From the NCBI RefSeq assembly GCF_900129855.1, contig NZ_LT670819.1:6324001-6388000 (forward strand): DNA of 64,000 nucleotides. Reading direction: 5' to 3'. Below the pieces are notes generated by a model, which was given only the letters and a program-made list of their open reading frames with translations, made no database searches and was not told the DNA's origin. Below, one piece after another: positions 28,983 through 41,125 of this stretch; within the stretch, counting starts at the first letter, position 1, and each line of letters opens with the position of its first letter. The DNA comes from Streptomyces sp. 3214.6. GTDB taxonomy: Bacteria > Actinomycetota > Actinomycetes > Streptomycetales > Streptomycetaceae. The translations under genes were made by a program, and so were the position numbers.

Positions 28983-30302
28983 TCACGCCGCGGCTACGGC
29001 GCCGTCCTCGGGACCCGTCGGCATCGTGCGCAGTCTGCCCACCGGGGACAGGATGATCGGGACGAGCATCGCCGCGGAGACCACGCCCGCGATCCACAGG
29101 GCGCCGTGCAGTCCCGCCACCGCCGCCAGCAGACCGCCCACGGGACCGCCCAGCGCACCGCCGCCGTACAGGAGCATGCGCATCGCCGCCGTCATCCGGC
29201 CCATCAGGGCCTGCGGGGTGATGGTCTGACGCAGGCTCACGATGAGGACGTTCGAGACGCTGCTGCCGAAGTACTCCAGGAAGAACGAGGCGACGAACAG
29301 GATCATCAGCATCCAGCGGGGACCCGTCGCCGCCGGGATCAGCAGCGGACCCAGGAAGATGATCGAGACCGACACCTGGTAGGCACGGCCCACCGTCAGC
29401 CGGCGCACCACCATCCCGGACACCAGCGCGCCCAGCAGACCCCCCACGGCCGCCGCGCCCATGACGAAGCCGACCGCGGCCGCCGACAGGTCCTTGTCGC
29501 GCACGGCGTACAGCAGGAACAGCGACTGCACCATCGTCAGCAGGAAGTTGCAGGAGCAGCCGACGAGCCCGATCGCGCGCAGCCAGCGGTTGCCGAACAC
29601 CCAGCGCAGGCCCTCGGCGAGTTCGGCCCGCAGCGGCCGCTTCTCGCGAGGCGTCTCCGGGGCGGGCTCGGGGGTTCTGATGATCAGCAGGGAGAGCACC
29701 GACACCGCGTAGGAGAAGGCGTTGGCGGTCATCGCGAAGGGCGCCGAGAACGCGCTCACCAGCGTGCCGGCCACCCCCGGCCCGGCGATGTCCGCCGACG
29801 ACAGCGTGGCGTTGAGCTTGGTGTTGGCCTCCAGCAGACTGCGCCGGTCCTTCACCAGCACCGGGACGTACGACATCCAGCTGACGTCGAAGAGCACCGA
29901 CGCCACCCCGACGCCCAGCGCCAGCGCGTACAGCAGCGGCAGGGTCAGCAGGTCGACGTGGTAGAGGACCGGGACCAGGCCGATCAGCACCATCCGCACC
30001 AGGTTGGCGCCCAGCATCACCGGCCGCTTGCGCACCCGGTCCACCCACACGCCGAACAGCAGAGCCAGCCCCAGGAACGGCACCAGCTGCGTGAACCGCA
30101 GCAGCCCGAGCTGCTCGGCCCCCACGTCGAAGACCAGTACCGCGGTGAGCGGAAGCGCGAGGTTGGTGATCTGGGTGCCGTACAGGGAGAGCGCCTCGCC
30201 CGTCCAGAACACCATGAAGTCCCGGTGGTGCCAGAGCGAGCGGGGCGGACTGTCCGGCTCGGCCTCGGCGACCGTCTCGGCGTGGGTGCCGTGCTCCGTC
30301 AT
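28983..30302 (-). CDS. Major facilitator superfamily exporter
   Basis: This 439-aa protein has about 12 membrane helices and looks like the EntS/macrolide-efflux MFS type (LWHHRDFMVFWTGEALSLYGTQITNLALPL at the first helix, GVWVDRVRKRPVML at the 2-3 loop). It is the last gene of the main NRPS operon; ATG at 30302 overlaps the thioesterase stop codon. Likely exports the product or provides self-resistance. Confidence 0.88.
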   Translation of the reverse strand: MTEHGTHAETVAEAEPDSPPRSLWHHRDFMVFWTGEALSLYGTQITNLALPLTAVLVFDVGAEQLGLLRFTQLVPFLGLALLFGVWVDRVRKRPVMLGANLVRMVLIGLVPVLYHVDLLTLPLLYALALGVGVASVLFDVSWMSYVPVLVKDRRSLLEANTKLNATLSSADIAGPGVAGTLVSAFSAPFAMTANAFSYAVSVLSLLIIRTPEPAPETPREKRPLRAELAEGLRWVFGNRWLRAIGLVGCSCNFLLTMVQSLFLLYAVRDKDLSAAAVGFVMGAAAVGGLLGALVSGMVVRRLTVGRAYQVSVSIIFLGPLLIPAATGPRWMLMILFVASFFLEYFGSSVSNVLIVSLRQTITPQALMGRMTAAMRMLLYGGGALGGPVGGLLAAVAGLHGALWIAGVVSAAMLVPIILSPVGRLRTMPTGPEDGAVAAA

Positions 30303-31114
30303 TCTGGCGTCGCCTCTCGTAGGGCCTGGTCGACGATGGCGCTGATGGCGGTCAGCCCGGGCTCCTGCCACACGGAGTGGTGGTCGCCGGGCACGGTGTG
30401 CTCGGTCAGCCTGCTCAGCCTGGGACGCCAGTCGAGCAGTCGCTCCTGAGACTCCGCGGCCTTGATCAGGATCGCGGGCCCGTCGTGGACCGACGCCACC
30501 GAATGCTGCCGCAGGGCCACGACATGCGTGCGGAAGAGGGCGTAGCGCTCCAGCAGGAACTCCGCGTCGAACTCCTCGGGCACGACCCCGTCGCGCTCCA
30601 CCACCTCGAAGATCTCGGCCGGCTCCGCCCCCGGCCGCATGCCTGCCAGGGCGGTGTCGACGCCGGGCGCCCGGTCCCGGGTCACGCCGAGGAAGTCGTA
30701 CAGGAAGTAGCGGGCGAGCTGGTCCTCGGGCGGCACCTGTTGGGTGCCGGGCAGTGCCGCGTCGACCATGACGAGCACGGGCACCTCTTCGCCCGCGGCG
30801 GCCAGCAGTCGCGCCATCTCGTAGGCGACGACCCCGCCGAGCGACCAGCCGAGCAGCAGGTACGGGCCGTGCGGGCGGGCCGCTCGCAGGGCGGCCGTGT
30901 GCAGCTCGGCCAGCTCCTGGATGGAGCGGGCGGGTTCGGAGACGCCGTCGAAGCCGGGTGCCTCGAAGCCGAACACGGGGCGTTCGGGGTCCAGTTGATG
31001 GGTCAGGCCCGCATAGCAGTAGGGCGAGCCGGAGACCGGATGGACGCAGTACAGAGGGGGCAGGCCACCCGCCGCGCGGAGGGGGACGATGCTGTTGACG
31101 GAGAGTTCGGTCAC
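30299..31114 (-). CDS. Stand-alone thioesterase
   Basis: This 271-aa alpha/beta hydrolase has the catalytic Ser in GWSLGG (Ser about 91), an Asp after VLVMVDA, and the His in PGDHHSVW near the end. Its sequence resembles NRPS C-terminal (type I) thioesterase domains more than the type II editing enzymes (for example PLYCVHPVSGSPYCYAGL). Neither NRPS here ends in a TE, so this enzyme is the best candidate for product release. GTG at 31114 overlaps the A-T NRPS stop by four bases. Confidence 0.85.
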   Translation of the reverse strand: MTELSVNSIVPLRAAGGLPPLYCVHPVSGSPYCYAGLTHQLDPERPVFGFEAPGFDGVSEPARSIQELAELHTAALRAARPHGPYLLLGWSLGGVVAYEMARLLAAAGEEVPVLVMVDAALPGTQQVPPEDQLARYFLYDFLGVTRDRAPGVDTALAGMRPGAEPAEIFEVVERDGVVPEEFDAEFLLERYALFRTHVVALRQHSVASVHDGPAILIKAAESQERLLDWRPRLSRLTEHTVPGDHHSVWQEPGLTAISAIVDQALREATPE

Positions 31115-33612
31115 TGCTCCGGAGCTCCGTTCGTGGTCGGTGCCGACCGCGCGAGCCGCTGGTCGATCTCGGAGGCGATGCCGCTGACGGTGTTCCCGCC
31201 GTACAGCAGCCGGACGTTCACCCTGACCCCGAAGTGCTTGGTGAGCCGGGTGACGGCACGCATGGCCTGCAGCGAGTTGCCGCCGACCGCGAAGAAGCTG
31301 CTGTCCGCGCCGACCCGGGACACCGACAGCACGGTCGCGAAGACCTCGGCCACGGTCCGCTCGGTCGGCGTGACCGGCGCCGCATACGTCCCCTCGGGCT
31401 CGCCGACGGGCTCCGGCGGGGCCGGCAGCGCCTTGCGGTCGACCTTGCCGTTGGGCGTCAACGGCAGCTCGGCCAGGACGAGCACGGTGCTCGGCACCAT
31501 GAAGCGCGGCAGGGACCGCGCGGCGTGCTCGCCGACCGCCTCCGGCGACACGGTCCGGCCCGCCGCGGCGACCACATGGGCGACCAGCCGCTGGTCGCCC
31601 GACCCGTCGGGGTGCGCGGTGACGACCGCCTCCCGGACCGTGTCGTGGGCGCGCAGGACGGCCTCGATCTCGCCGAGTTCGATGCGCAGCCCGCGCACCT
31701 TCACCTGGAAGTCGGACCTGCCCAGCAGCTCGATCAGACCGTCGGGGCCGTAGCGGGCCACATCGCCGGTCCGGTAGAGGCGCTCGTCCGTCACCTCGCC
31801 GCAGGACCAGGTGAAGAACCGCTCCGCGGTCTGCTCGGGCCGGCCGAGATAGTCCCGGGCGAGCCCGATGCCCGCCAGGTGCAGCTCGCCGGGCACACCG
31901 GGCGGCACCGGGCGGCGGGAGTCGTCGAGGATGTAGGTGCGCTGGTTGGCCATGGGACGCCCGTACGGGATGCTCGTCCAGCGCGGGTCGGTCTTCTCCA
32001 CCTCGTAGATGGTGGAGTGGATGGACGACTCGGTGGCCCCGCCGAGGGCGATGAAGCGCACCCCGGGAGCGACCGCGCGGGTCCGGTCGGGCAGTGACAC
32101 GGGGATCCAGTCGCCGCCCAGCAGCGCCAGCCGCAGGTCGTCGAGCGGCGGCGCGCCGACGCTGTCGAGGTGGGTGACGACCAGGTCCAGGAGAGCGGGC
32201 GCCGAGTTCCAGACGGTGACCTGGTGCGCGGCCAGCAGCTCCGCCCAGTGCTCGGGGTCCTTGGCCCGCTCCGGGTCCGGCAGGATCACGGTGCCGCCGG
32301 CGGCCGTCAGCCCCAGGAACTCGTAGACCGACATGTCGAAGCTGGGCGAGGACAGCGCGAGGACGCGGTCGCCGGAGCCCACGCCGAAACGGGAGTTGAG
32401 GTCCGCGATGTTGTTCATCACCCCGCGGTGGCGCAGGGCGATCGGCTTGGGGGCGCCGGTCGACCCGGAGGTGTGGATGACGTAGGCCAGGTCGTCCGGA
32501 CCGGCGCCCCCCTGCGGGTTGTGAGCCGGGCGGGCGGCGAGGAGGGCCTCGTCGCGGTCGAGGAGCACCACGGGACCGCCCGGCGTGGTGTCCGGCAGGG
32601 GGAGGCCGGCGGCCGGGCCGCTGCGGCTGATCACCGCCGTGCAGGAGGTGCCGGTCATCATCGCGGCGAGCCGCTGCTCGGGGTAGTCGGGGTCGAGCGG
32701 CACATAGGCGCCGCCCGCCTTGAGCACGCCCAGGACGGCGACCAGCAGGTCCCAGGAGCGCTCCAGGCAGATGCCGACCCGCCGGTCGGGACCCACGCCC
32801 AGCTCGCGCAGATGGTGGGCGAGCCGGTTCGCCGCCTCGTTGACCTCGCGGTACGTCCACGTCCGGCGGCCGCTGTCGTCGCTGTCGCCGCCGCCGATGA
32901 GCGCGGGGGCGTTGGGCGACTCGGCGGCGTGGGCCTCGAACGCGGTGTGCAGGCACACGTCGTGCGGCAGGTCCGTGTCGGTGGCGTTCCAGTCGACGAG
33001 GACGCGCTGCAGCTCGGTCTCCGGGAGCAGACGCAAGCGGGAGACCGGACGGTCCGGGGCGGCCAGCCCGTCCGCCAGCAGGGTGCGGTAGCAGGCGAGC
33101 AGCCGGACCAGGGTGTCCTGGTCGAACAGGGCGGGCGGATACCGCAGTTCGGCGGTGCGCGGGCCGTCGTCGGGCTCGCCCGGTGGGTGCAGTACGAGCT
33201 CGAACTCGTCCGACTGCGCGGGGTCCGTGGCCGGTGTGCGGCCGGCGGCGGTGCCGCGGGCCAGCCCGGCGAGGGTGGACGCCGTGGTGACGACGCAGGC
33301 CAGACGGACCGCGCCCGTCGTGGGGGTCCGCGCGGCGAACGCGAACTCGGACTGGCCCGTCCAGCGGTGCAGCAGCGCGGTGAACGCGGCCAGGAGGACG
33401 TCGTCCGGGGCGGTGCGGGCCGAGCCGTCGAGCCGCACCCGGGCGGAACCGGTGCGGTCCGGAGTGGTTCCGGGCAGCCGGGGCCGATCCGTCGGCAGCA
33501 GGGCCGGGGGCGCCGAACGCGGAGCGGCCGAGGAGGAAGCCGGGGCGGAAGCCTGGGAGGAAACAGATGAAAGAGCGGGGGAGGAGCTGTGGGGGGAAGC
33601 GTTCAGGGTCAA
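31111..33612 (-). CDS. NRPS A-T protein with a truncated condensation domain
   Basis: This 833-aa protein has a Ser/Ala/Pro-rich start, a partial condensation-like region (about 45-180) without the HHxxxDG motif, an adenylation domain (about 205-720) and a T domain (Ser about 780 in GGNSLQAM). Adenylation motifs: IHTSGSTGAPK, GRSDFQVKVRGLRIELGEIE and LTPNGKVDRKAL. I read the specificity positions as D-M-Y-N-L-G-L-I-H-K, nearest among codes I remember to Cys-type (DLYN-), with Gly-like xGLI; no firm call. TTG at 33612 overlaps the SHMT-like stop (TTGA), with GGAGAG five bases upstream. It probably presents one amino acid for in-trans tailoring or condensation. Confidence 0.88.
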   Translation of the reverse strand: MTLNASPHSSSPALSSVSSQASAPASSSAAPRSAPPALLPTDRPRLPGTTPDRTGSARVRLDGSARTAPDDVLLAAFTALLHRWTGQSEFAFAARTPTTGAVRLACVVTTASTLAGLARGTAAGRTPATDPAQSDEFELVLHPPGEPDDGPRTAELRYPPALFDQDTLVRLLACYRTLLADGLAAPDRPVSRLRLLPETELQRVLVDWNATDTDLPHDVCLHTAFEAHAAESPNAPALIGGGDSDDSGRRTWTYREVNEAANRLAHHLRELGVGPDRRVGICLERSWDLLVAVLGVLKAGGAYVPLDPDYPEQRLAAMMTGTSCTAVISRSGPAAGLPLPDTTPGGPVVLLDRDEALLAARPAHNPQGGAGPDDLAYVIHTSGSTGAPKPIALRHRGVMNNIADLNSRFGVGSGDRVLALSSPSFDMSVYEFLGLTAAGGTVILPDPERAKDPEHWAELLAAHQVTVWNSAPALLDLVVTHLDSVGAPPLDDLRLALLGGDWIPVSLPDRTRAVAPGVRFIALGGATESSIHSTIYEVEKTDPRWTSIPYGRPMANQRTYILDDSRRPVPPGVPGELHLAGIGLARDYLGRPEQTAERFFTWSCGEVTDERLYRTGDVARYGPDGLIELLGRSDFQVKVRGLRIELGEIEAVLRAHDTVREAVVTAHPDGSGDQRLVAHVVAAAGRTVSPEAVGEHAARSLPRFMVPSTVLVLAELPLTPNGKVDRKALPAPPEPVGEPEGTYAAPVTPTERTVAEVFATVLSVSRVGADSSFFAVGGNSLQAMRAVTRLTKHFGVRVNVRLLYGGNTVSGIASEIDQRLARSAPTTNGAPEQ

Positions 33613-35087
33613 GGCCTCTCTCCTGGGGCGAGGGCGGGGACGTCGGCCGTGGGGACGGCGGCTCCGAAGGGCAGCGGATGGATGTGGCACAGGGCGGCCA
33701 CCTCGGCCCGCACCCGGTCGCGCACGGCCGGGTCGGTGCGGAACTCGGTGTCCGACAGCACGGTGGTGGCGCTGAGCACCTCGTGCAGGAGACCGGCGCA
33801 GACCCGCATCTCGGCGGGCCCCATGCCGCGCTGCGCCAGGACGTTCGTGCCGAGCCGCAGGCCGCCGGCGACCAGCGGGGGCTTGTCGTCGCCGGGGATG
33901 CGGTTGCGGTTCGTGAGGATTCCGCAGTCCTCAAGGGCTCGTTCGGCGACCACGCCGGTCATGCCGCGCCCGGCCATGTCCAGCAGCACCATGTGGTTGT
34001 CGGTGCCGCCGGTCAGGACCCGGTGGCCGAGCCCCGCCAGATCGCCGGCGAGGGCCGCGGCGTCGTCGACGACCAGCCGCATGGTCTCCTTGAACGCCGG
34101 TTCCGCCACCGCCTTCAGGGCGTGCGCCTTGGCGGCGATCGAGGCCGGGCTCGGGGTGCCCTGCGACTGGGGGAAGACCGCGCGCTGCATCAGCCGGTCG
34201 AGAGGGGTGCGGCCGTCCGGGCCCGGGGTGCGGTGCTCCCGTCCGATGAGGATCAGGCCCCCGCGCGGGCCGCCCAGCTGCTTGTAGGTGCTGGTGGTGG
34301 TGATGTGGGCGAGGTCGATGGGGCTGGGGTGTTCGCCGGCGGCCACCAGACCGGCGATGTGCGAGATGTCGGCGACCAGAAACGCCCCGACGGAGTCCGC
34401 GATCGCCCGGAACCTGACGAAGTCGAGCGTCCGTGGATAGGCGCTGGCCCCCGCGATGACCACGGTGGGGCGGTGGACCCGGGCCAGTTCGGCCGCCTGG
34501 TCGTAGTCGACGAACCCACGCTCGTCCAGGCCGTAGTGGACCGCCCGGTAGTGGCGCCCGGTCACCGAGGCCGAGGACCCGTGGGTGAGATGGCCCCCGG
34601 CGTCCAGGTCAAGGGCGAGCAGGGCGCCGCCCGGGGGCAGTAACGCGGCCAGCACGGCCTGGTTCGCCGAGGAGCAGGAGTGCGGCTGGACGTTGGCGTA
34701 GCGGGCGCCGAAGGCCTGCCGGGCCCGGTCGGCGGCCAGCCGCTCCACCCCGTCGAAGCGGCTCGCGCCGGGGTGGTAGCGGGCCCCCGGATAGCCCTCG
34801 GCCGTCACGTTCGACAGCGCGGCACCGCCCGTGGCCAGGACCGACGGGCTCGCGACGCTGGCGGACGCCACCATCGCCAGCGTCGCGGTCTGCTCCTCCA
34901 CCTCCCGGTCGAGCAACCCGGCCAGCTCGGGATCGGTCCGGGTCAACAGCTCCGCGCCCCGCCGCAGCAGCAGAGCCTGCGCGGAGCCGGAGCCGGAGCC
35001 GGAGCCGGAGTCGGTGCCGGGGGCGGTGTTGGGGCCGTTCTGTTGACGGCCCGGGGCCGCGGTCGCGGCCCGCGGGGTCTCAAGCAT
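33609..35087 (-). CDS. Serine hydroxymethyltransferase-like PLP enzyme
   Basis: This 492-aa fold-type I enzyme has the PLP lysine at about 269 in TTTSTYKQLGGPRGG. Housekeeping SHMT has His before Thr/Lys at the Tyr position. It keeps LRLGTN (carboxylate-binding Arg), AEGYPGARYHPG and SANQAVLAALLPPG. The extra 35 N-terminal residues include a Gly-Ser run. Secondary SHMTs in biosynthetic clusters can make beta-hydroxy or alpha-methyl amino acids by aldol chemistry. An in-frame TTA codon lies at 34641-34643. ATG at 35087 overlaps the C-A-T NRPS end by eight bases. Confidence 0.87.
   Translation of the reverse strand: MLETPRAATAAPGRQQNGPNTAPGTDSGSGSGSGSAQALLLRRGAELLTRTDPELAGLLDREVEEQTATLAMVASASVASPSVLATGGAALSNVTAEGYPGARYHPGASRFDGVERLAADRARQAFGARYANVQPHSCSSANQAVLAALLPPGGALLALDLDAGGHLTHGSSASVTGRHYRAVHYGLDERGFVDYDQAAELARVHRPTVVIAGASAYPRTLDFVRFRAIADSVGAFLVADISHIAGLVAAGEHPSPIDLAHITTTSTYKQLGGPRGGLILIGREHRTPGPDGRTPLDRLMQRAVFPQSQGTPSPASIAAKAHALKAVAEPAFKETMRLVVDDAAALAGDLAGLGHRVLTGGTDNHMVLLDMAGRGMTGVVAERALEDCGILTNRNRIPGDDKPPLVAGGLRLGTNVLAQRGMGPAEMRVCAGLLHEVLSATTVLSDTEFRTDPAVRDRVRAEVAALCHIHPLPFGAAVPTADVPALAPGERP
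34641..34643 (-). promoter_or_regulatory. TTA codon (bldA-dependent) in the SHMT-like gene
   Basis: In-frame TTA at codon 149 (frame checked from the ATG at 35087) within AALLPPG. It is the only TTA I saw in the NRPS operon. In Streptomyces such codons commonly delay secondary-metabolite expression until bldA tRNA is charged. Confidence 0.85.
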
Positions 35088-38000
35088 GCGTACCCGCCGC
35101 CTTCTTGGCCTGCGTCAGCCCGTCGACGGCCGAGGCGATGGTGGCGACCGTGGCCCCGCCGTACAGCAGACGGACGTTGACCTTGACGCCGAAGTGCTTG
35201 TTCAGCCGACTCACCACCCGCATCGCCTGCAGCGAGTTGCCACCCAGCTCGAAGAAGCTGCCGTCCGCTCCGACCTGCTCCATGGACAGCACGGCGCCGA
35301 AGACCTCGGCCACCTTCTCCTCCGTGGCGGTCCCCGGGGCGACAAAACTCGCCGCGCCGTCCGTCGCGGACACCGGAGCGGGCAGCGCGCTCCGGTTGAT
35401 CTTGCGGGCCGGGGTCAGCGGGAACTCCGCCAGCTCCACCCAGGCCGTGGGCACCATGTACTCGGGCATCGTGCGACCCAGGTGCTCGCGCAGCTCGGCC
35501 ACGGTCGGCGAGGCGTCACCGAGCACCGTGTAGTAGGCGACGAGCTGCTTCTCCCCGCCGTCCTCCCGCAGCAGCACCAGAGCCATACGGATCTTCGGGT
35601 GCGTCAGCAGCCCCGACTCGATCTCGCCGAGCTCGATCCGCAGCCCGCGCAGCTTCACCTGGTTGTCCAGGCGGCCGATGAAGTCGATCTGCAGATCGCG
35701 CGTCCAACGCACCAGGTCACCCGTGCGGTACACCCGGCCCTCGCCCAGGAACGGGTCGGGGACGAACTTCTCGTCCGTCATCTCCGGCAGGTTCAGATAG
35801 CCGCGGGCCAGGCCCTCGTCGCCGCCGATCAGCAGCTCGCCCGGCACACCGACCGGCACCAGGTTGAAGTCCTTGTCGACCACGTAGTGCAGCCGGCTGA
35901 ACTCGGGCCGGCCGATGGGCGGCGACGACAGCCACTCCTTGTGCTCGCACAGGTATTCGGTGGTCGCCACCGATGCCTCGGTCGGACCGTAGAGGTTCAC
36001 GAACTTGCGGCCCGGCAGGTTCCACTTGTTGACCAGCTCGGCCGGCAGGGCCTCCGCACCGCCCATGATGTACTTCAGATCCGGGTACGGCCCCGCCTCG
36101 ACCACGGAGAGGATCGCCGGCGACAGACCGGCGTACGTGACCCGCTGGTCCCGGATCAGCGCGCCCAGGGACTCAGGCGAGGAGGCGTCCTCCGGCGCCA
36201 CCAGCACCATCGCCGAACCGCTGATCAGACCGGCGAAGATCTCACCCTGAGACATGTCGAAGGTCAGCGCCGGCAGCTGCAGCAGCCGGTCCTCGTGGGT
36301 CCACTCGCCGAAGCTGCGCCGGTAGGCCTCGATGAACATGCGCAGACCGCGCTGCTCGATCATCACGCCCTTGGGACGCCCGGTCGAGCCCGAGGTGTAG
36401 AGGACGTACACCAGCGACGTCGGCTCCGCCCACTCCTCCAGCGGCACGTCGTCCGACTGCGCCTCGATGACGTCCCAGTCGGCGTCGATCCGCAGGCTCT
36501 CCCAGCCGCAACTGTCCGGCAGATCGCCCAGCGCGGCCTGCCGCGTGATGACCAGCGGTGTTGCGGTGTCCCGCAGCATGTGGTCCAGCCGGGCGTTGGG
36601 GTGCGAGGGGTCGATGATCGTGTACGCGGCGCCGGACACCATCACGCCCAGGATCGCCACCAGGGCGTCCAGGTCGCGGTCCATTGCGATGGCCACGACC
36701 TGCTCGCGGCCCACGCCCCGGGAGCGGATGTACCGGGCGAGCTTCCCGGCCCGCCGCATCAGCTCGCCGTACGTCATCTCCACCCCGCGGCAGACCGCCG
36801 CGACCAGCTCCGGGTGCTCCTCGGCGATCCGCGCGATCGTCGCGTGGACCGGCTCCGTCGGGTACTCGAAGTCGGGGCCGCGTCCGACCGCGAGCAGTTC
36901 CTCGCGCTCGGCTCCGGACAGCAGCGGCAGCGCGGAGACCGGGGTGTCCGGGGCGTCCGCCGCGGCCGCGAGCACGGTCTCGAAGTGCCGGACCAGGGCC
37001 TCGACGCGCCAACGGTCGTACAGGTCGGTCGCGAACTCGACGATCAGCCGCAGCCGTTCGGCGCCCTCGACGAAGCTGAAGGACACATCGAACCGGGAGC
37101 GCGTCCCCGCCACCGTGATCGTCTCGGCCGTCAGGCCCGCCAGCTGGAACGCGTCGCCGGTGGTCGTCTCGCCGAGCAGCTGGCAGGCGATCTGGAACAG
37201 CGGGTTGCGGCCCGCGTCCCGGACCGGCTGCACCCGGTCCACGATACGGTCGAACGGCACGTCCTGGTTGTCGTACATGTCGAGGTTGGCGTCGGTGATG
37301 CGCTCCAGCAGCTCGGCGAAGGTGACCCCGCCGGACAGGTCGGACCGCAACACCGTCATGTTGATGAACAGGCCTACGACGTCCTCGAGTTCGGGGTCCG
37401 TACGGCCGAGCATGGGCACCCCGAGGGCGATGTCGTCCTGGCCGCTGTACCGGCTCAGCACGACGTTCAGTGCCGCGGCGACCACCATGTACAGGGACGC
37501 GCCCTGCTCCTGCGCCAAGGCACGTGCCTTGGTGAGCAGTTCGGTGGGGAAGTCGACTACGAAGGTCTCGCCGCTCTGGGTGGGCTCCGCGGGCCGCAGC
37601 CGGTCGGCGGGCAGTTCGAGCGCCTCCAGGCCGGCCAGCCGCTCCTGCCAGAACTTGAGCTCCTCCTCCCAGACACCGTCGGCCTGCTGCCGACGCTGCT
37701 CCTGGACGTGGTCGCCGTAGCCGACCGTCAGCTCCGGGAGCGCGGGCGTGCGGCCCGCCGTCAGGTCCCCGTAGGCCTGGGAGATCTCACGGCTGATCAC
37801 ACCGCCGGACCAGCCGTCGGTGACGATGTGATGGAAGCCGAGGCAGAGCACATGGTGGTCGGCGGCCAGCCGGAACAGCAGGAACCGGGAGAGGGGCCCC
37901 GCCGTCAGGTCGAACGGCGTGTCGGCCTCGGTCTGCAGCGCCTCGCGCAGCGCGCTCTCCGCGTCTTCGGGGTCCGGCCGGGAGAGGTCGCGAAGCGGCA

Positions 38001-38259
38001 GCGGCCGGTCCTGCGCCGGTGCGACGACCTGGTAGGGCACACCGTCCGCCGAGTGGAAGGTCACCCGCAGCTGCTCGTGGCGCGCCACCAGCACGTTGAG
38101 GGCCTGCTCCAGCGCGGGCACGTCCAGCGGACCGCGCAGCCGGTAGGCCTGGATGACGTTGTAGGTGGTCTCCCCGGGACTCATCTGGTCCAGGAACCAC
38201 AACTGCTCCTGCCCGAAGGACAGTTGGATGCGTGACTCGTCGGGGAGCGAGGCGCTCAT
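35080..38259 (-). CDS. Nonribosomal peptide synthetase, C-A-T module
   Basis: This 1059-aa protein has a condensation domain (about 10-440; HHIVTDGWS near 140), an adenylation domain (about 460-960; LYTSGSTGRPKG, NLYGPTEAS, GRLDNQVKLRGLRIELGEIE) and a T domain (Ser about 1009, LGGNSLQAM). No epimerisation or TE domain. I read specificity positions as D-M-G-G-I-G-L-V-A-K, which matches no code I know. The upstream C domain needs a donor from another carrier, either the free ACP or the A-T protein. ATG at 38259 chosen; a GTG two codons earlier (38265) is possible, with GGAG in front of both. SHMT-like gene overlaps its end. Confidence 0.93.
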   Translation of the reverse strand: MSASLPDESRIQLSFGQEQLWFLDQMSPGETTYNVIQAYRLRGPLDVPALEQALNVLVARHEQLRVTFHSADGVPYQVVAPAQDRPLPLRDLSRPDPEDAESALREALQTEADTPFDLTAGPLSRFLLFRLAADHHVLCLGFHHIVTDGWSGGVISREISQAYGDLTAGRTPALPELTVGYGDHVQEQRRQQADGVWEEELKFWQERLAGLEALELPADRLRPAEPTQSGETFVVDFPTELLTKARALAQEQGASLYMVVAAALNVVLSRYSGQDDIALGVPMLGRTDPELEDVVGLFINMTVLRSDLSGGVTFAELLERITDANLDMYDNQDVPFDRIVDRVQPVRDAGRNPLFQIACQLLGETTTGDAFQLAGLTAETITVAGTRSRFDVSFSFVEGAERLRLIVEFATDLYDRWRVEALVRHFETVLAAAADAPDTPVSALPLLSGAEREELLAVGRGPDFEYPTEPVHATIARIAEEHPELVAAVCRGVEMTYGELMRRAGKLARYIRSRGVGREQVVAIAMDRDLDALVAILGVMVSGAAYTIIDPSHPNARLDHMLRDTATPLVITRQAALGDLPDSCGWESLRIDADWDVIEAQSDDVPLEEWAEPTSLVYVLYTSGSTGRPKGVMIEQRGLRMFIEAYRRSFGEWTHEDRLLQLPALTFDMSQGEIFAGLISGSAMVLVAPEDASSPESLGALIRDQRVTYAGLSPAILSVVEAGPYPDLKYIMGGAEALPAELVNKWNLPGRKFVNLYGPTEASVATTEYLCEHKEWLSSPPIGRPEFSRLHYVVDKDFNLVPVGVPGELLIGGDEGLARGYLNLPEMTDEKFVPDPFLGEGRVYRTGDLVRWTRDLQIDFIGRLDNQVKLRGLRIELGEIESGLLTHPKIRMALVLLREDGGEKQLVAYYTVLGDASPTVAELREHLGRTMPEYMVPTAWVELAEFPLTPARKINRSALPAPVSATDGAASFVAPGTATEEKVAEVFGAVLSMEQVGADGSFFELGGNSLQAMRVVSRLNKHFGVKVNVRLLYGGATVATIASAVDGLTQAKKAAGTHA

Positions 38260-38319
38260 CGTCACAGGACTCCAATCGGCTGTACACGGTGGTGTTCCAA
38301 CGGGGGCGTTACGGGGACG

Positions 38320-39426
38320 TCAGTGGTTCGGGGGCGGTGCAGTCGTGCGGGCGTCGGGCCTGAGGACGCTCTCCACGCGGCGCAGTCCTTCGGTCACCGC
38401 CTCGGGTGAGCGCGCGAAACAGATCCGGAAACCGTCGCTGGCGCCGAGGGTCTCGCCGGGCATCAGCAGAACGCCCAGGTCCAGCGCCCGGCGGCACATC
38501 GCCAGCGGCTCCTCCCCGGTCCGGAGCCAGAGCCAGGCGAACGGCGTGCCCTCCGGTTCCACGAGCTCCACCGCGTCCGCGTTGCGCCGGGCGAACTCCC
38601 TGACCAGGGACAACCCCTGCCCGGTGAGTTCGTGATAGGACCGCAGATGGCGCTCACGGTCGGCCAGCACCTCACGGGCCAGCGTCTCGCACAGCACCGA
38701 ATTGGAGATGGTGGACAGGAACTTGCGCTCGGCACAGCCCGCCACCACGGACGGCGGACCGTACAGCCAGCCCACCCGCAGCCCCGGGAAGCCGTACACC
38801 TTGGACAGGCTGGACACGGAGATCACCCGGTCGCCGTCGAGCGCGGCGGAGCGGGACAGATCGAGCGCGTACTCCTCGTCGAGCAGCAGACGAGCGCCCG
38901 TGCGCGAGGCGAGGGCCACCAGGGCGCGCAGGTCCCGCTCGGCTATGCGCCGACCGGTCGGATTGCACGGGCTGTTGGCCACGATCAGCTTCACGTCGGG
39001 CCCGGCGACGGCCTCGGCGGCCTCGACGTCGAAGCTCAGATCCGGGCGGAACCCGACGAGATCGACCCGGCAGCCGAGCGCGGCCGGCACGTCCCAGGAC
39101 TGCTGCCAGCCCGGCCGGAAACCGATCACCCGGTCCCCGGGGCTCAGCAGCGACGCGTACACGAGGTAGAGGGCCTGTTGGGCGCCCTGGGTGATGAGGA
39201 CCGAGTCGGGCGACCCGCCGTAGAGTTCCGCCACCGCCTCGCGCAGCGCGCCCAGGCCGTGGTCGTGGCCGTAGTCCAGCTCCAGGCCGGCCGGCAGGGT
39301 GAGGTCGTCGAGGTGTCCGGGGAGCATGTTGCTGTCGCCGAGGTCGATGTCGAAGCGCCCCGCGGCGTCCTCGAACACCCACCGCTGCATCGGATAGTCG
39401 CGGGCGCGCTCGACGGAGACGGTCAC
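38320..39426 (-). CDS. PLP-dependent aminotransferase, class I/II
   Basis: This 368-aa fold-type I enzyme has the PLP lysine at about 209 in SLSKVYGFPGLRVGW. NSPCNPTG and LLLDEEYALDLS hold the cofactor ring and pyridine nitrogen. QGAQQALYLVYASLL lies at the phosphate-binding region. Could supply a nonproteinogenic amino acid or catalyse beta/gamma-replacement, as do capreomycidine-synthase-like relatives. GTG at 39426 overlaps the DapF-like stop by four bases (GTGA). The gap to the NRPS start is 60 bases. Confidence 0.87.
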   Translation of the reverse strand: MTVSVERARDYPMQRWVFEDAAGRFDIDLGDSNMLPGHLDDLTLPAGLELDYGHDHGLGALREAVAELYGGSPDSVLITQGAQQALYLVYASLLSPGDRVIGFRPGWQQSWDVPAALGCRVDLVGFRPDLSFDVEAAEAVAGPDVKLIVANSPCNPTGRRIAERDLRALVALASRTGARLLLDEEYALDLSRSAALDGDRVISVSSLSKVYGFPGLRVGWLYGPPSVVAGCAERKFLSTISNSVLCETLAREVLADRERHLRSYHELTGQGLSLVREFARRNADAVELVEPEGTPFAWLWLRTGEEPLAMCRRALDLGVLLMPGETLGASDGFRICFARSPEAVTEGLRRVESVLRPDARTTAPPPNH

Positions 39427-40355
39427 AACGCCGCCCCGGCCGTCGCGGCTCTGGCCCCGGTCGCCGTCGCCAGCAGGCCGAGCCTGGCGCGCAGCGCGGG
39501 CGCGAAGGCGCCGACGGCCACCTGCTCGGCGTCTCCGGTCATGGTGACCCGGCCGTCCGCCCCGACGCTGATCTCCACACTGCCCCCCGGCATCCTGACC
39601 TCCACCCGCTCGTCGCACAGTCCGAGTTCACGCGCCGCGGAGGCCGCGGCACAGGCGCTGCTCCCGGACGCCGTCACATAACCGGCGCCCCGCTCGAAGA
39701 CCTCCAGCTCCATGACGTTCCGGCCCGCCATGCGCGCGAACTGCACATTGGTGGCCTGGGGGAAACGGGGGTGCCGGGCGATCTTCGGTCCGAGCAGGCG
39801 GGCCAGCCGCGCAGTCGGGTCGTCCACCAGCACCACGGTATGCGGGTTGCCGTTGTACACACAGGTGACGATCAGCCGATCCCCGTCCACCGTCAGCGGC
39901 ACGGACACCGCCCGGCCGCGGTACGGCGTGTCGTCCTCGTCGAGCAGCGGCAGATCGGCCGCGTCGAAGCTGGGGCGGCCCATGCCGACCTCCACGCGGC
40001 CCGCGGCGGCGTCGAGGATCCGCACCGGACACTCGCCCGCGGCCGTACGCAGCGTGAACTCCCGCCCGTCCGCCCAGCCGCCGGGCTCCTGCGCGGCCAG
40101 GTGCAGGGCGAACATCCGCAGTCCGTTGCCGCTGCGGCCGCAGTCGGAACCGTCGGAGTTGTACAGGGCGAGCGGCACCGGCGACCCGGCGCGGGGCTCC
40201 TCCAGCGGCCCGTACAGCACACCGTCCGCCCCGATCCCCCGGTGCCGGTCGCAGACCAGCCGGATCGTCTCGGGGCTGACGGTGAAATCGGTGTGGCGCG
40301 GATCGATCACCAGGTAGTCGTTGCCCGCCGCCTGGTACTTGAAGAAGTCGGTCAC
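39423..40355 (-). CDS. Diaminopimelate epimerase-fold protein with both catalytic Cys replaced by Ser
   Basis: This 310-aa protein aligns along DapF: FKYQAAGNDYLV at the start, NSDGSDCGRSGNGLR (about 66-80), YNGNPHTVVLVDD and ERGAGYVTASGSSAC (about 221-235). DapF uses two cysteines as acid and base (in MCGNG and ACGSG motifs); here they are Ser 75 and Ser 230, both confirmed in the DNA. So it is unlikely to be an ordinary thiol-based DAP epimerase and may isomerise, eliminate or racemise a different amino acid. GTG at 40355 is preceded by GGAGGGAG. Confidence 0.85.
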   Translation of the reverse strand: MTDFFKYQAAGNDYLVIDPRHTDFTVSPETIRLVCDRHRGIGADGVLYGPLEEPRAGSPVPLALYNSDGSDCGRSGNGLRMFALHLAAQEPGGWADGREFTLRTAAGECPVRILDAAAGRVEVGMGRPSFDAADLPLLDEDDTPYRGRAVSVPLTVDGDRLIVTCVYNGNPHTVVLVDDPTARLARLLGPKIARHPRFPQATNVQFARMAGRNVMELEVFERGAGYVTASGSSACAAASAARELGLCDERVEVRMPGGSVEISVGADGRVTMTGDAEQVAVGAFAPALRARLGLLATATGARAATAGAAL

Positions 40356-40438: not shown

Positions 40439-41125
40439 CTACTTCTCGGCGAGCGCGGCGGCGTCGTGCTCCTCGCCGTACCACTTCTCCGCCCACCGCG
40501 AGAACGCGACGATGACGATGTCCCGGTGGCCCGGGCCGCCGTCGGCGGAGAGCACGTCGGTGACGTCGTGGGAGAGCGCCCGGTCGTCCAGCAGGACCGC
40601 CTGACCCGGTTCGAGCGTGCCCGTCCAGAAGGGCTGGTCGGCCCCCTCGTGCCACAGGCGCGTGGTGCCGCCGGCCACGTTCACCTTGTTGAGGATCGCG
40701 ATCATCACGAACTCGTGCCCGTCGTGGTGCACGCCCTCCGGGGTGAGCGGGCCCGGCTTGCCGCCGTCCGCACGGGTCCGGTTCTGGTGGACGTTGATCT
40801 GCCAGTCCTCGGACCGGTCGAGGCCGAGTTCGCGGATGCCCGCCTCGATAAGCGGCGTGAAGTCCACCTTGATCGGCTCGTAGACCCGGCGGATGCCGCC
40901 GCCGACCGAGTTGAACTTCTTGTACGTCGTGTAGTCCCGGTGCGCGAGCCGCTCGAACGACCACGCCTGGTCGCCCTGCGGGCTGAGCCGGTACTGGGAG
41001 AACCGTTTGAAGCGGGTGCCGTTGCCCATGTACTCGTCGACCGGGCAGTCGTCGTAGCTGGGCAGGATGTCGGGCGAGACATCCGGCAGGTCGATGATGA
41101 CGAACCCTTCACTGCCGAGCGGCAT
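40439..41125 (-). CDS. 2-oxoglutarate/Fe(II) dioxygenase, PF10014-like
   Basis: This 228-aa cupin-fold oxygenase has a likely iron-binding HxD in VHHDGHEF (about 130-137), the distal His in ALSHDVTDV (about 190), and the 2OG-binding Arg in HRDIVIVAFSRW. KRFSQYRLSP and KKFNSVGGG match the amino-acid dioxygenases of the isoleucine-4-hydroxylase group. It probably hydroxylates a free amino acid building block. ATG at 41125 follows GGAGG. It sits 34 bases after the diiron enzyme gene. Confidence 0.85.
   Translation of the reverse strand: MPLGSEGFVIIDLPDVSPDILPSYDDCPVDEYMGNGTRFKRFSQYRLSPQGDQAWSFERLAHRDYTTYKKFNSVGGGIRRVYEPIKVDFTPLIEAGIRELGLDRSEDWQINVHQNRTRADGGKPGPLTPEGVHHDGHEFVMIAILNKVNVAGGTTRLWHEGADQPFWTGTLEPGQAVLLDDRALSHDVTDVLSADGGPGHRDIVIVAFSRWAEKWYGEEHDAAALAEK

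What the first reader, a model, noticed from the sequence alone, without database searches (positions are those of the whole stretch)
39423..40355. DapF-fold protein with both catalytic cysteines replaced by serine
DNA confirms Ser 75 (RSGNGLR) and Ser 230 (TASGSSAC) at the two positions where diaminopimelate epimerase and related histidine racemases have Cys. The rest of the fold is well kept. Paired loss suggests a changed reaction rather than decay: the gene is embedded in a coupled operon with an aminotransferase and two oxygenases.
Basis: partly seen in the sequence, partly recalled or inferred. Interest (0 to 1): 0.7.

Follow-up and report, generated by a model that had tools for sequence, protein, structure and literature searches.

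The report
Rewired DapF-like enzyme in nitrocyclopropane clusters
A bacterial gene annotated as a lysine-pathway epimerase has lost both of that enzyme's catalytic cysteines, gained a new one beside the binding pocket, and travels almost always with two oxygenases that turn lysine into a rare nitro-cyclopropane amino acid, so it probably does an undescribed job in making that building block.

Summary
The gene (minus strand, 39423-40355, 310 aa) has Ser75 and Ser230 where DAP epimerase has its catalytic cysteines; the genome keeps a normal Cys/Cys DapF elsewhere. It is not decay. Among 33 distinct orthologues (39-88% identical to it) site 2 is Ser in 33 of 33 and site 1 Ser in 32 of 33, under purifying selection. 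All 33 also carry a new Cys72, three residues before site 1; none of 37 other DapF-type rows has it. In DapF that loop position faces the substrate chain. Nearly all other DAP-contacting residues are kept.

32 of 33 loci sit beside a heme-oxygenase-like dimetal oxidase (HrmI/BelK type) and a 2OG-Fe enzyme (BelL/HrmJ type), in at least five kinds of cluster including a belactosin-like one. This is therefore the third gene (belM/hrmT type) of the lysine-to-nitrocyclopropylalanine cassette, which a review guessed to be a DAP epimerase supplying lysine. The sequence speaks against that guess. I propose that it binds the lysine-derived nitro intermediate in the DAP pocket and manages the proton on the nitro carbon, probably with Cys72. 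The chemistry is untested; a non-catalytic binder remains possible.

The parts
39423..40355 (-). DapF-fold protein, 310 aa, Ser75/Ser230 in place of the catalytic Cys pair, invariant Cys72 (BelM/HrmT-type third gene)
40131..40133 (-). codon 75 AGC, Ser at catalytic site 1
   Evidence: position computed from the gene start
40140..40142 (-). codon 72 TGC, the clade-specific Cys72
   Evidence: position computed from the gene start
39666..39668 (-). codon 230 TCC, Ser at catalytic site 2
   Evidence: position computed from the gene start
40439..41125 (-). 2OG-Fe dioxygenase (PF10014), BelL/HrmJ-type nitrocyclopropane synthase homologue
   Evidence: alignment over 227 aa with PDB 8jms/9dq0, 467 bits
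41160..42311 (-). heme-oxygenase-like dimetal oxidase (PF14518), HrmI/BelK-type lysine N6-oxygenase homologue
   Evidence: HrmI 9n1a 228 bits
38320..39426 (-). PLP class I/II aminotransferase-fold enzyme, GntC/VioD-like, 4-bp overlap with the DapF-like gene
35080..38265 (-). NRPS C-A-T module
33609..35087 (-). serine hydroxymethyltransferase-like enzyme
31111..33690 (-). NRPS A-T module with a fragmentary condensation remnant
30299..31114 (-). thioesterase
28983..30371 (-). MFS transporter

Best explanation
The gene is the third, nearly constant member of the cassette that turns L-lysine into 3-(2-nitrocyclopropyl)alanine (Ncpa): HDO (lysine to 6-nitronorleucine), 2OG enzyme (6-nitronorleucine to Ncpa), and this protein. 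It is a DapF-fold protein that is no longer a DAP epimerase. Proposed mechanism: 6-nitronorleucine has the lysine chain with a nitro group where DAP has its reacting carboxylate. The L-amino-acid end sits in DapF's recognition sub-site (Asn66, Asn203, Arg222, Glu221, usually Asn170). The nitro group sits in the oxyanion hole at the ends of the two central helices (residues 76-77 and 231-232). The protein then moves the proton at the nitro carbon, either making the nitronate that the cyclopropanase needs or setting or correcting the configuration of the nitro-bearing carbon. A thiolate pair, needed for an alpha-carbon of pKa about 29, is unnecessary for a nitroalkane carbon acid (pKa about 9-10, recalled), so Ser/Ser can serve as hydrogen-bond donors while the relocated Cys72 is the likely base. 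Shown: family, fold, Ser/Ser plus Cys72, cassette association, selection, retained binding residues. Inferred: substrate, chemistry, role of Cys72. The confidence given is for the mechanism; for the identification as a belM/hrmT-type cassette gene it is about 0.9.
For: All 20 DapF-Ser genes found in 394 Streptomycetaceae genomes lie beside HDO and 2OG genes; over all searches 32 of 33 distinct loci do. The constant part across at least five cluster types, Agrobacterium vitis included, is HDO+2OG+DapF-Ser, so the function most likely belongs to Lys to Ncpa. The partners match HrmI and a solved BelL-type protein; the BelK/HrmI and BelL/HrmJ reactions are described in PMC10764440. That review says C6 deprotonation to the nitronate is critical, that BelL accelerates it, and that cyclisation is favoured at pH 9-11. 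CgDapF contacts (PMC5296763) are conserved: N12, N66, N77, N203, E221, R222 and G231 33/33. Cys72 33/33 against 0/37 elsewhere; the equivalent CgDapF Ala80 is close to the substrate's hydrophobic part (PMC11602996).
Against: HDO and 2OG enzymes make Ncpa in vitro without it (PMC10764440), so it is not indispensable. One cassette (L061) lacks it, though that genome carries a second cassette with it. One member (L158) has no HDO/2OG nearby. The ligand for the DAP amino group (Glu) is also kept, so an amino acid at the catalytic sub-site is not excluded. The position of CgDapF Asn159 varies (N in 22 of 33). Serine is a poor general base. No coordinates were available to measure Cys72 against a ligand.
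Confidence: 0.38

Rival explanations
1. Pseudoenzyme: a non-catalytic DapF-fold binder that carries, shields or channels the lysine-derived N-oxidised intermediate between the HDO and the 2OG enzyme, or scaffolds them.
For: Binding residues kept while both catalytic residues are lost; close gene pairing with HDO and 2OG; not needed in vitro (PMC10764440).
Against: A clade-wide gain of a Cys in the substrate-facing loop (33/33) suggests chemistry.
Confidence: 0.25
2. An active isomerase or epimerase at another carbon, using Cys72 as the base: for example at the alpha-carbon of lysine or Ncpa, or a double-bond shift or elimination, as in other DapF-fold enzymes with altered catalytic residues.
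For: The Glu that holds the DAP amino group is invariant (E221 33/33). The fold also hosts PhzF, 3-hydroxyproline dehydratase and methylitaconate isomerase (fold matches). Glutamate-racemase Cys-to-Ser mutants do eliminations (PMC8142540 passage).
Against: Cys72 sits three residues before the catalytic position, and its DapF counterpart lies beside the hydrophobic chain; I know of no racemised product that all cluster types would need.
Confidence: 0.15
3. It acts after Ncpa, together with the neighbouring aminotransferase, in tailoring the building block.
For: 4-bp overlap with the aminotransferase gene; an aminotransferase of this type (45% or more identical) lies beside DapF-Ser in 25 of 33 loci.
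Against: L041, L063, L068, L069, L070, L156 and L157 have the trio without that adjacent aminotransferase, so the association with HDO+2OG is the wider one.
Confidence: 0.1
4. Ordinary DAP epimerase that raises L-lysine supply, as guessed for belM/hrmT in PMC10764440.
For: Scores above the NCBIfam DapF equivalog cut-off; published guess. Two Ser/Cys DapFs (L087, L101), the only DapF match in their genomes, lie beside a gene that I read as LL-DAP aminotransferase, so Ser at site 1 alone may be tolerated.
Against: Both Cys absent in all 33; single Cys-to-Ser mutants keep under 0.1% activity in PddB (PMC8225329) and are greatly reduced in HisR (PMC11602996). The genome has a canonical DapF.
Confidence: 0.04
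5. A decaying or mis-annotated gene.
For: Loss of both catalytic residues.
Against: dN/dS 0.23-0.34, clade-wide fixation, confident fold model.
Confidence: 0.01

Closest known systems
Diaminopimelate epimerase DapF (TIGR00652; e.g. 9mro, 3ejx, 5m47)
   Same: Fold (Z 36.9 to 9mro), substrate-contact residues, helix-end carboxylate hole
   Different: Both catalytic Cys are Ser; new Cys72; sits in a biosynthetic cassette, with a normal DapF elsewhere in the genome
BelM/HrmT, the DapF-like genes of the belactosin and hormaomycin clusters (PMC10764440)
   Same: Third gene with HDO (BelK/HrmI) and 2OG (BelL/HrmJ); the orthologue in two belactosin-like clusters (L041, L068) is Ser/Ser and Asn/Ser
   Different: The sequences of BelM and HrmT themselves were not available here; no function has been shown for them in the papers I could search
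DapF-fold racemases outside lysine biosynthesis: O-ureidoserine racemase (7vdy), PddB, histidine racemases CntK/HisR
   Same: DapF fold recruited to other pathways (7vdy Z 35.3)
   Different: PddB and HisR are described as enzymes with two catalytic cysteines
PhzF and the proline-racemase superfamily (hydroxyproline epimerases and dehydratases)
   Same: Same broader fold (Z 22-27), showing that the fold can change chemistry
   Different: Low identity (8-17%); different catalytic residues in PhzF (recalled)

Membership tests
Diaminopimelate epimerase (DapF) | Sequence-family score above the curated cut-off | tested here: met
   TIGR00652 194.6 bits vs 114.65
Diaminopimelate epimerase (DapF) | DapF fold | tested here: met
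   AF2 pLDDT 92.2; Z 36.9, rmsd 2.3 over 277 residues to 9mro
Diaminopimelate epimerase (DapF) | Catalytic Cys pair at the N-ends of the two central helices | tested here: not met
   Ser75 and Ser230; 0 of 33 orthologues have Cys at either site
Diaminopimelate epimerase (DapF) | DAP-contact residues (CgDapF N15, N74, N85, N159, N194, E212, R213, T223) | tested here: met
   Counterparts in the window protein: N12, N66, N77, N170, N203, E221, R222, S232; across 33 orthologues N170 22/33 and S232 26/33, the others 33/33 (contacts)
Diaminopimelate epimerase (DapF) | Epimerises LL-DAP to meso-DAP | not testable with these tools
   needs an assay
BelM/HrmT-type third gene of the nitrocyclopropylalanine cassette | Next to HrmI/BelK-type HDO and BelL/HrmJ-type 2OG enzyme | tested here: met
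   32 of 33 loci
BelM/HrmT-type third gene of the nitrocyclopropylalanine cassette | Sequence orthology to BelM and HrmT themselves | tested here: inconclusive
   Their sequences were not held; orthologues L041 and L068 lie in belactosin-like clusters (IPMS, LeuC, LeuD, AMP ligases, ATP-grasp)
PhzF-type isomerase | Catalytic residues of PhzF | not tested
   only fold similarity seen

The most novel reading that the evidence does not exclude
A new enzyme activity on the DapF scaffold: a cofactor-free protein that recognises a nitro group in place of the reacting carboxylate of DAP and catalyses nitroalkane/nitronate proton transfer (or stereo-editing of a nitrocyclopropane), with the catalytic cysteine moved from the two classical sites to position i-3.
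Probability: 0.3. Interest if true: 0.85.

Novelty: new variant of a known kind. Interest (0 to 1): 0.6.

Why it matters
The cassette that makes nitrocyclopropyl amino acids is a notable case of enzymatic nitration and cyclopropanation, yet its third gene has only a guessed role, lysine supply. Loss of both catalytic cysteines throughout the clade makes that guess unlikely and replaces it with a concrete, testable question. If the protein handles the nitronate, it would explain how the cyclopropanase gets its reactive form at neutral pH and would give a new catalyst for carbon acids on a well-studied fold. It also warns that a score above the DapF equivalog cut-off can name a protein without DapF's catalytic residues.

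Tried and rejected
Lysine supply and decay were tested against sequence and selection and set aside. An event restricted to this strain was rejected. The idea that Ser/Ser is unique to this cassette was also rejected: 8 other Ser/Ser DapF-like proteins turned up (L075, L076, L078, L091, L093, L096, L102, L132), of which L132 and L093 are sisters of the clade and the other six form a separate group. None of the 8 has Cys72. For six of the 8 (L122, L123, L125, L127, L128, L132) I read the gene neighbourhood by eye and saw no cassette partners; the wider stretches L124 and L126, for the other two, were fetched but not read.

2OG homologues of 30-41% identity (L042-L048, L071, L072: 9 loci) have neither HDO nor DapF-Ser nearby and were treated as another subfamily; 13 further weak 2OG matches (32-36%) were not opened. 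L067 has only a truncated 2OG gene. The first structure job (6 close sequences) gave pLDDT 60.8 and was not used. No coordinates are returned, so distances in the active site could not be measured. The hormaomycin cluster itself was not recognised among the fetched loci. The 2022 HrmI/HrmJ paper was not held. Searches for belM and hrmT each gave only PMC10764440; the library lacks most subscription papers, so work on them may exist. Rows dropped: L133 and L135 (annotated dapF genes not caught by my pattern; sites not checked) from the tree and site tables; identical copies L051, L052, L150, L152 from the counts.

Full report
WHAT IS THERE. The gene is on the minus strand, 39423-40355, GTG to TGA, 310 aa. 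It matches the DapF family over its length (TIGR00652 194.6 bits, cut-off 114.65; Pfam 148 bits). Codon 75 is AGC and codon 230 is TCC, both Ser, where DapF has its two catalytic cysteines. The same genome has one other DapF-type gene, at C1:2654734-2655582, with Cys at both sites; the two proteins are 31% identical.

NEIGHBOURS. In transcription order: heme-oxygenase-like dimetal oxidase (HDO, PF14518), 2OG-Fe dioxygenase (PF10014), the DapF-like gene, a PLP aminotransferase-fold enzyme closest to GntC/VioD models but below their cut-offs, an NRPS C-A-T, an SHMT-like enzyme, an NRPS A-T, a thioesterase and an MFS transporter. The DapF-like stop and the aminotransferase start overlap by 4 bp. 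The HDO matches solved HrmI (228 bits). The 2OG enzyme aligns over 227 residues at 467 bits (about 87% identity by my reading of the alignment) with 8jms/9dq0, named 'BsmA domain containing protein'; that this is the S. cavourensis BelL homologue of the review is my inference. [quoted passage not shown]

HOW WIDESPREAD. A scan with the protein gave 6 Streptomyces loci, 79-89% identical in the best segment, all with HDO, 2OG, DapF-like and aminotransferase genes in tandem (the downstream NRPS part is reduced in L006). A 2OG search of 394 Streptomycetaceae genomes gave 40 genomes with a match. A profile of the DapF-like family over 394 family genomes gave 20 genomes at E 1e-60 or better (384-493 bits); all 20 carry HDO and 2OG beside the gene (and the window). 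Conversely, of 22 2OG matches of 49% or more identity in that sample, 20 have the DapF-like gene; the exceptions are L061 (a second cassette in a genome that has another complete one) and L067 (truncated 2OG gene). A 392-genome genus sample gave 15 genomes and 16 matches; of the 9 newly opened loci 8 have the trio and one, L158, does not. A sample of 396 genomes of the phylum had no further member: the next score was 274 against 493 bits. An Agrobacterium vitis plasmid carries the trio. Removing identical copies leaves 33 distinct proteins and loci, 32 of 33 with HDO and 2OG adjacent.

THE SITES. In these 33: Ser230 33/33, Ser75 32/33 (Asn in L068), Cys72 33/33, and N12, N66, N77, N203, E221, R222, G231 33/33; N170 is N in 22, V 5, S 3, T 2, G 1; S232 is S in 26, A in 7. 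Identity to the window protein runs from 39 to 88%, lowest pair 35%. Among 29 Cys-type DapF rows and 8 other Ser/Ser rows none has Cys at column 72 (on 26 cassette rows). The columns that best tell the clade apart include G49, P50, C72, S75, S230 and M255, with a few hydrophobic ones. CgDapF structure work (PMC5296763, passages) places the reacting carboxylate at Gly84, Asn85, Gly222, Thr223, the D-amino group at Glu212, and the L-end at Asn74, Asn159, Asn194, Arg213 and Glu212; alanine mutants of the side-chain contacts were almost inactive. All these have counterparts in the window protein. CgDapF Ala80, the counterpart of Cys72 by spacing, is close to the hydrophobic part of the substrate (PMC11602996 section 8), and the loop it lies in curves around the substrate (PMC12039745, passage).

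NOT DECAY, ONE CLADE. A 63-row tree puts the 26 cassette rows in one clade, support 100/99, far from the host's DapF. Its sisters are two other Ser/Ser proteins: L132 on a contig filed as viral, and L093. Six more Ser/Ser proteins of other Actinomycetota families form a separate group, so the Ser pair probably arose more than once. Pairwise dN/dS for the gene is 0.23-0.34 in 7 comparisons, near HDO (0.23-0.37), 2OG (0.15-0.25) and aminotransferase (0.17-0.31).

STRUCTURE. Best matches are DAP epimerases, 9mro Z 36.9 and 3ejx Z 35.8, then O-ureidoserine racemase Z 35.3. A first model from 6 sequences was poor.

BELACTOSIN LINK. L041 and L068 hold LeuD- and LeuC-type proteins and AMP-binding ligases (one or other locus for each protein), a protein read by eye as ATP-grasp and an isopropylmalate-synthase-type gene within a few kb of the cassette. 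PMC11427300 (passages) describes IPMS orthologues, an ATP-grasp ligase and acyl-CoA-synthetase-like enzymes in the bel cluster. I read these as belactosin-like clusters; their DapF-like proteins are Ser/Ser and Asn/Ser. BelM and HrmT themselves could not be read.

MECHANISM. Lysine supply is unlikely: single Cys-to-Ser mutants of PddB keep less than 0.1% activity (PMC8225329) and those of HisR are greatly reduced (PMC11602996), here both are Ser, and the host has a real DapF. What nearly all loci share is the lysine-to-Ncpa segment. 6-Nitronorleucine fits the DAP pocket on paper: same chain, L-amino acid at one end, a nitro group where the reacting carboxylate lies. The review stresses that nitronate formation at C6 is critical for the 2OG step and that the step is favoured at high pH. 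A DapF-type pocket that stabilises a carboxylate-derived dianion should suit a nitronate, and such a carbon acid (pKa about 9-10, recalled) does not need the thiolate pair that copes with a pKa near 29 (PMC12039745). Cys72 is then the most plausible new acid/base. From the fit in the pocket onward this is inference. Against it: the reaction runs in vitro without the protein, the amino-group ligand Glu is retained, one cassette lacks the gene, and a silent binder would show most of the same features.

NOVELTY. The trio of genes is in print; in the papers I could search, belM and hrmT appear only in PMC10764440. I found no statement about missing cysteines or a gained one in the passages read there. 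A paper outside the library may have noticed it. I rate it a new variant of a known kind, interest 0.6.

Noticed in passing
L075, L076, L078, L091, L096, L102 (unnamed Actinomycetota genomes): A separate group of Ser/Ser DapF-like proteins in families f22 and f36, mostly in genomes with a second DapF-type match; no cassette partners seen in the loci read. Function unknown.
   Followed up: partly
L087/L129 and L101/L130: Ser/Cys DapF, the only DapF match in their genomes, beside a gene that looks like LL-DAP aminotransferase: a possible working DAP epimerase with one Ser.
   Followed up: partly
L132:2923-3765 (contig filed as viral): Ser/Ser DapF-like protein, sister of the cassette clade but without Cys72, near a serine recombinase.
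   Followed up: partly
L128 (G757): Ser/Ser DapF-like gene (L093) divergent from a LysA-type decarboxylase (PF02784).
   Followed up: partly
L006, L055, L058: The window-type cluster occurs without an intact SHMT gene and second NRPS A-T module beside it (L006 keeps an SHMT fragment), so two versions of the product may exist.
   Followed up: no
L059, L062, L064, L065, L066, L154, L155: Cassettes with a different gene order (2OG-HDO-DapF-aminotransferase); proteins resembling asparagine synthetase or ATP-grasp were recognised by eye around L062 and L065.
   Followed up: no
L161-L166 (viral contigs): Phage-type DapF homologues with the Cys pair on several contigs.
   Followed up: no
L137, L138 (Streptomyces plasmids): Plasmid-borne Cys/Cys DapFs next to GntR regulators, close to the host DapF in the tree.
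   Followed up: no
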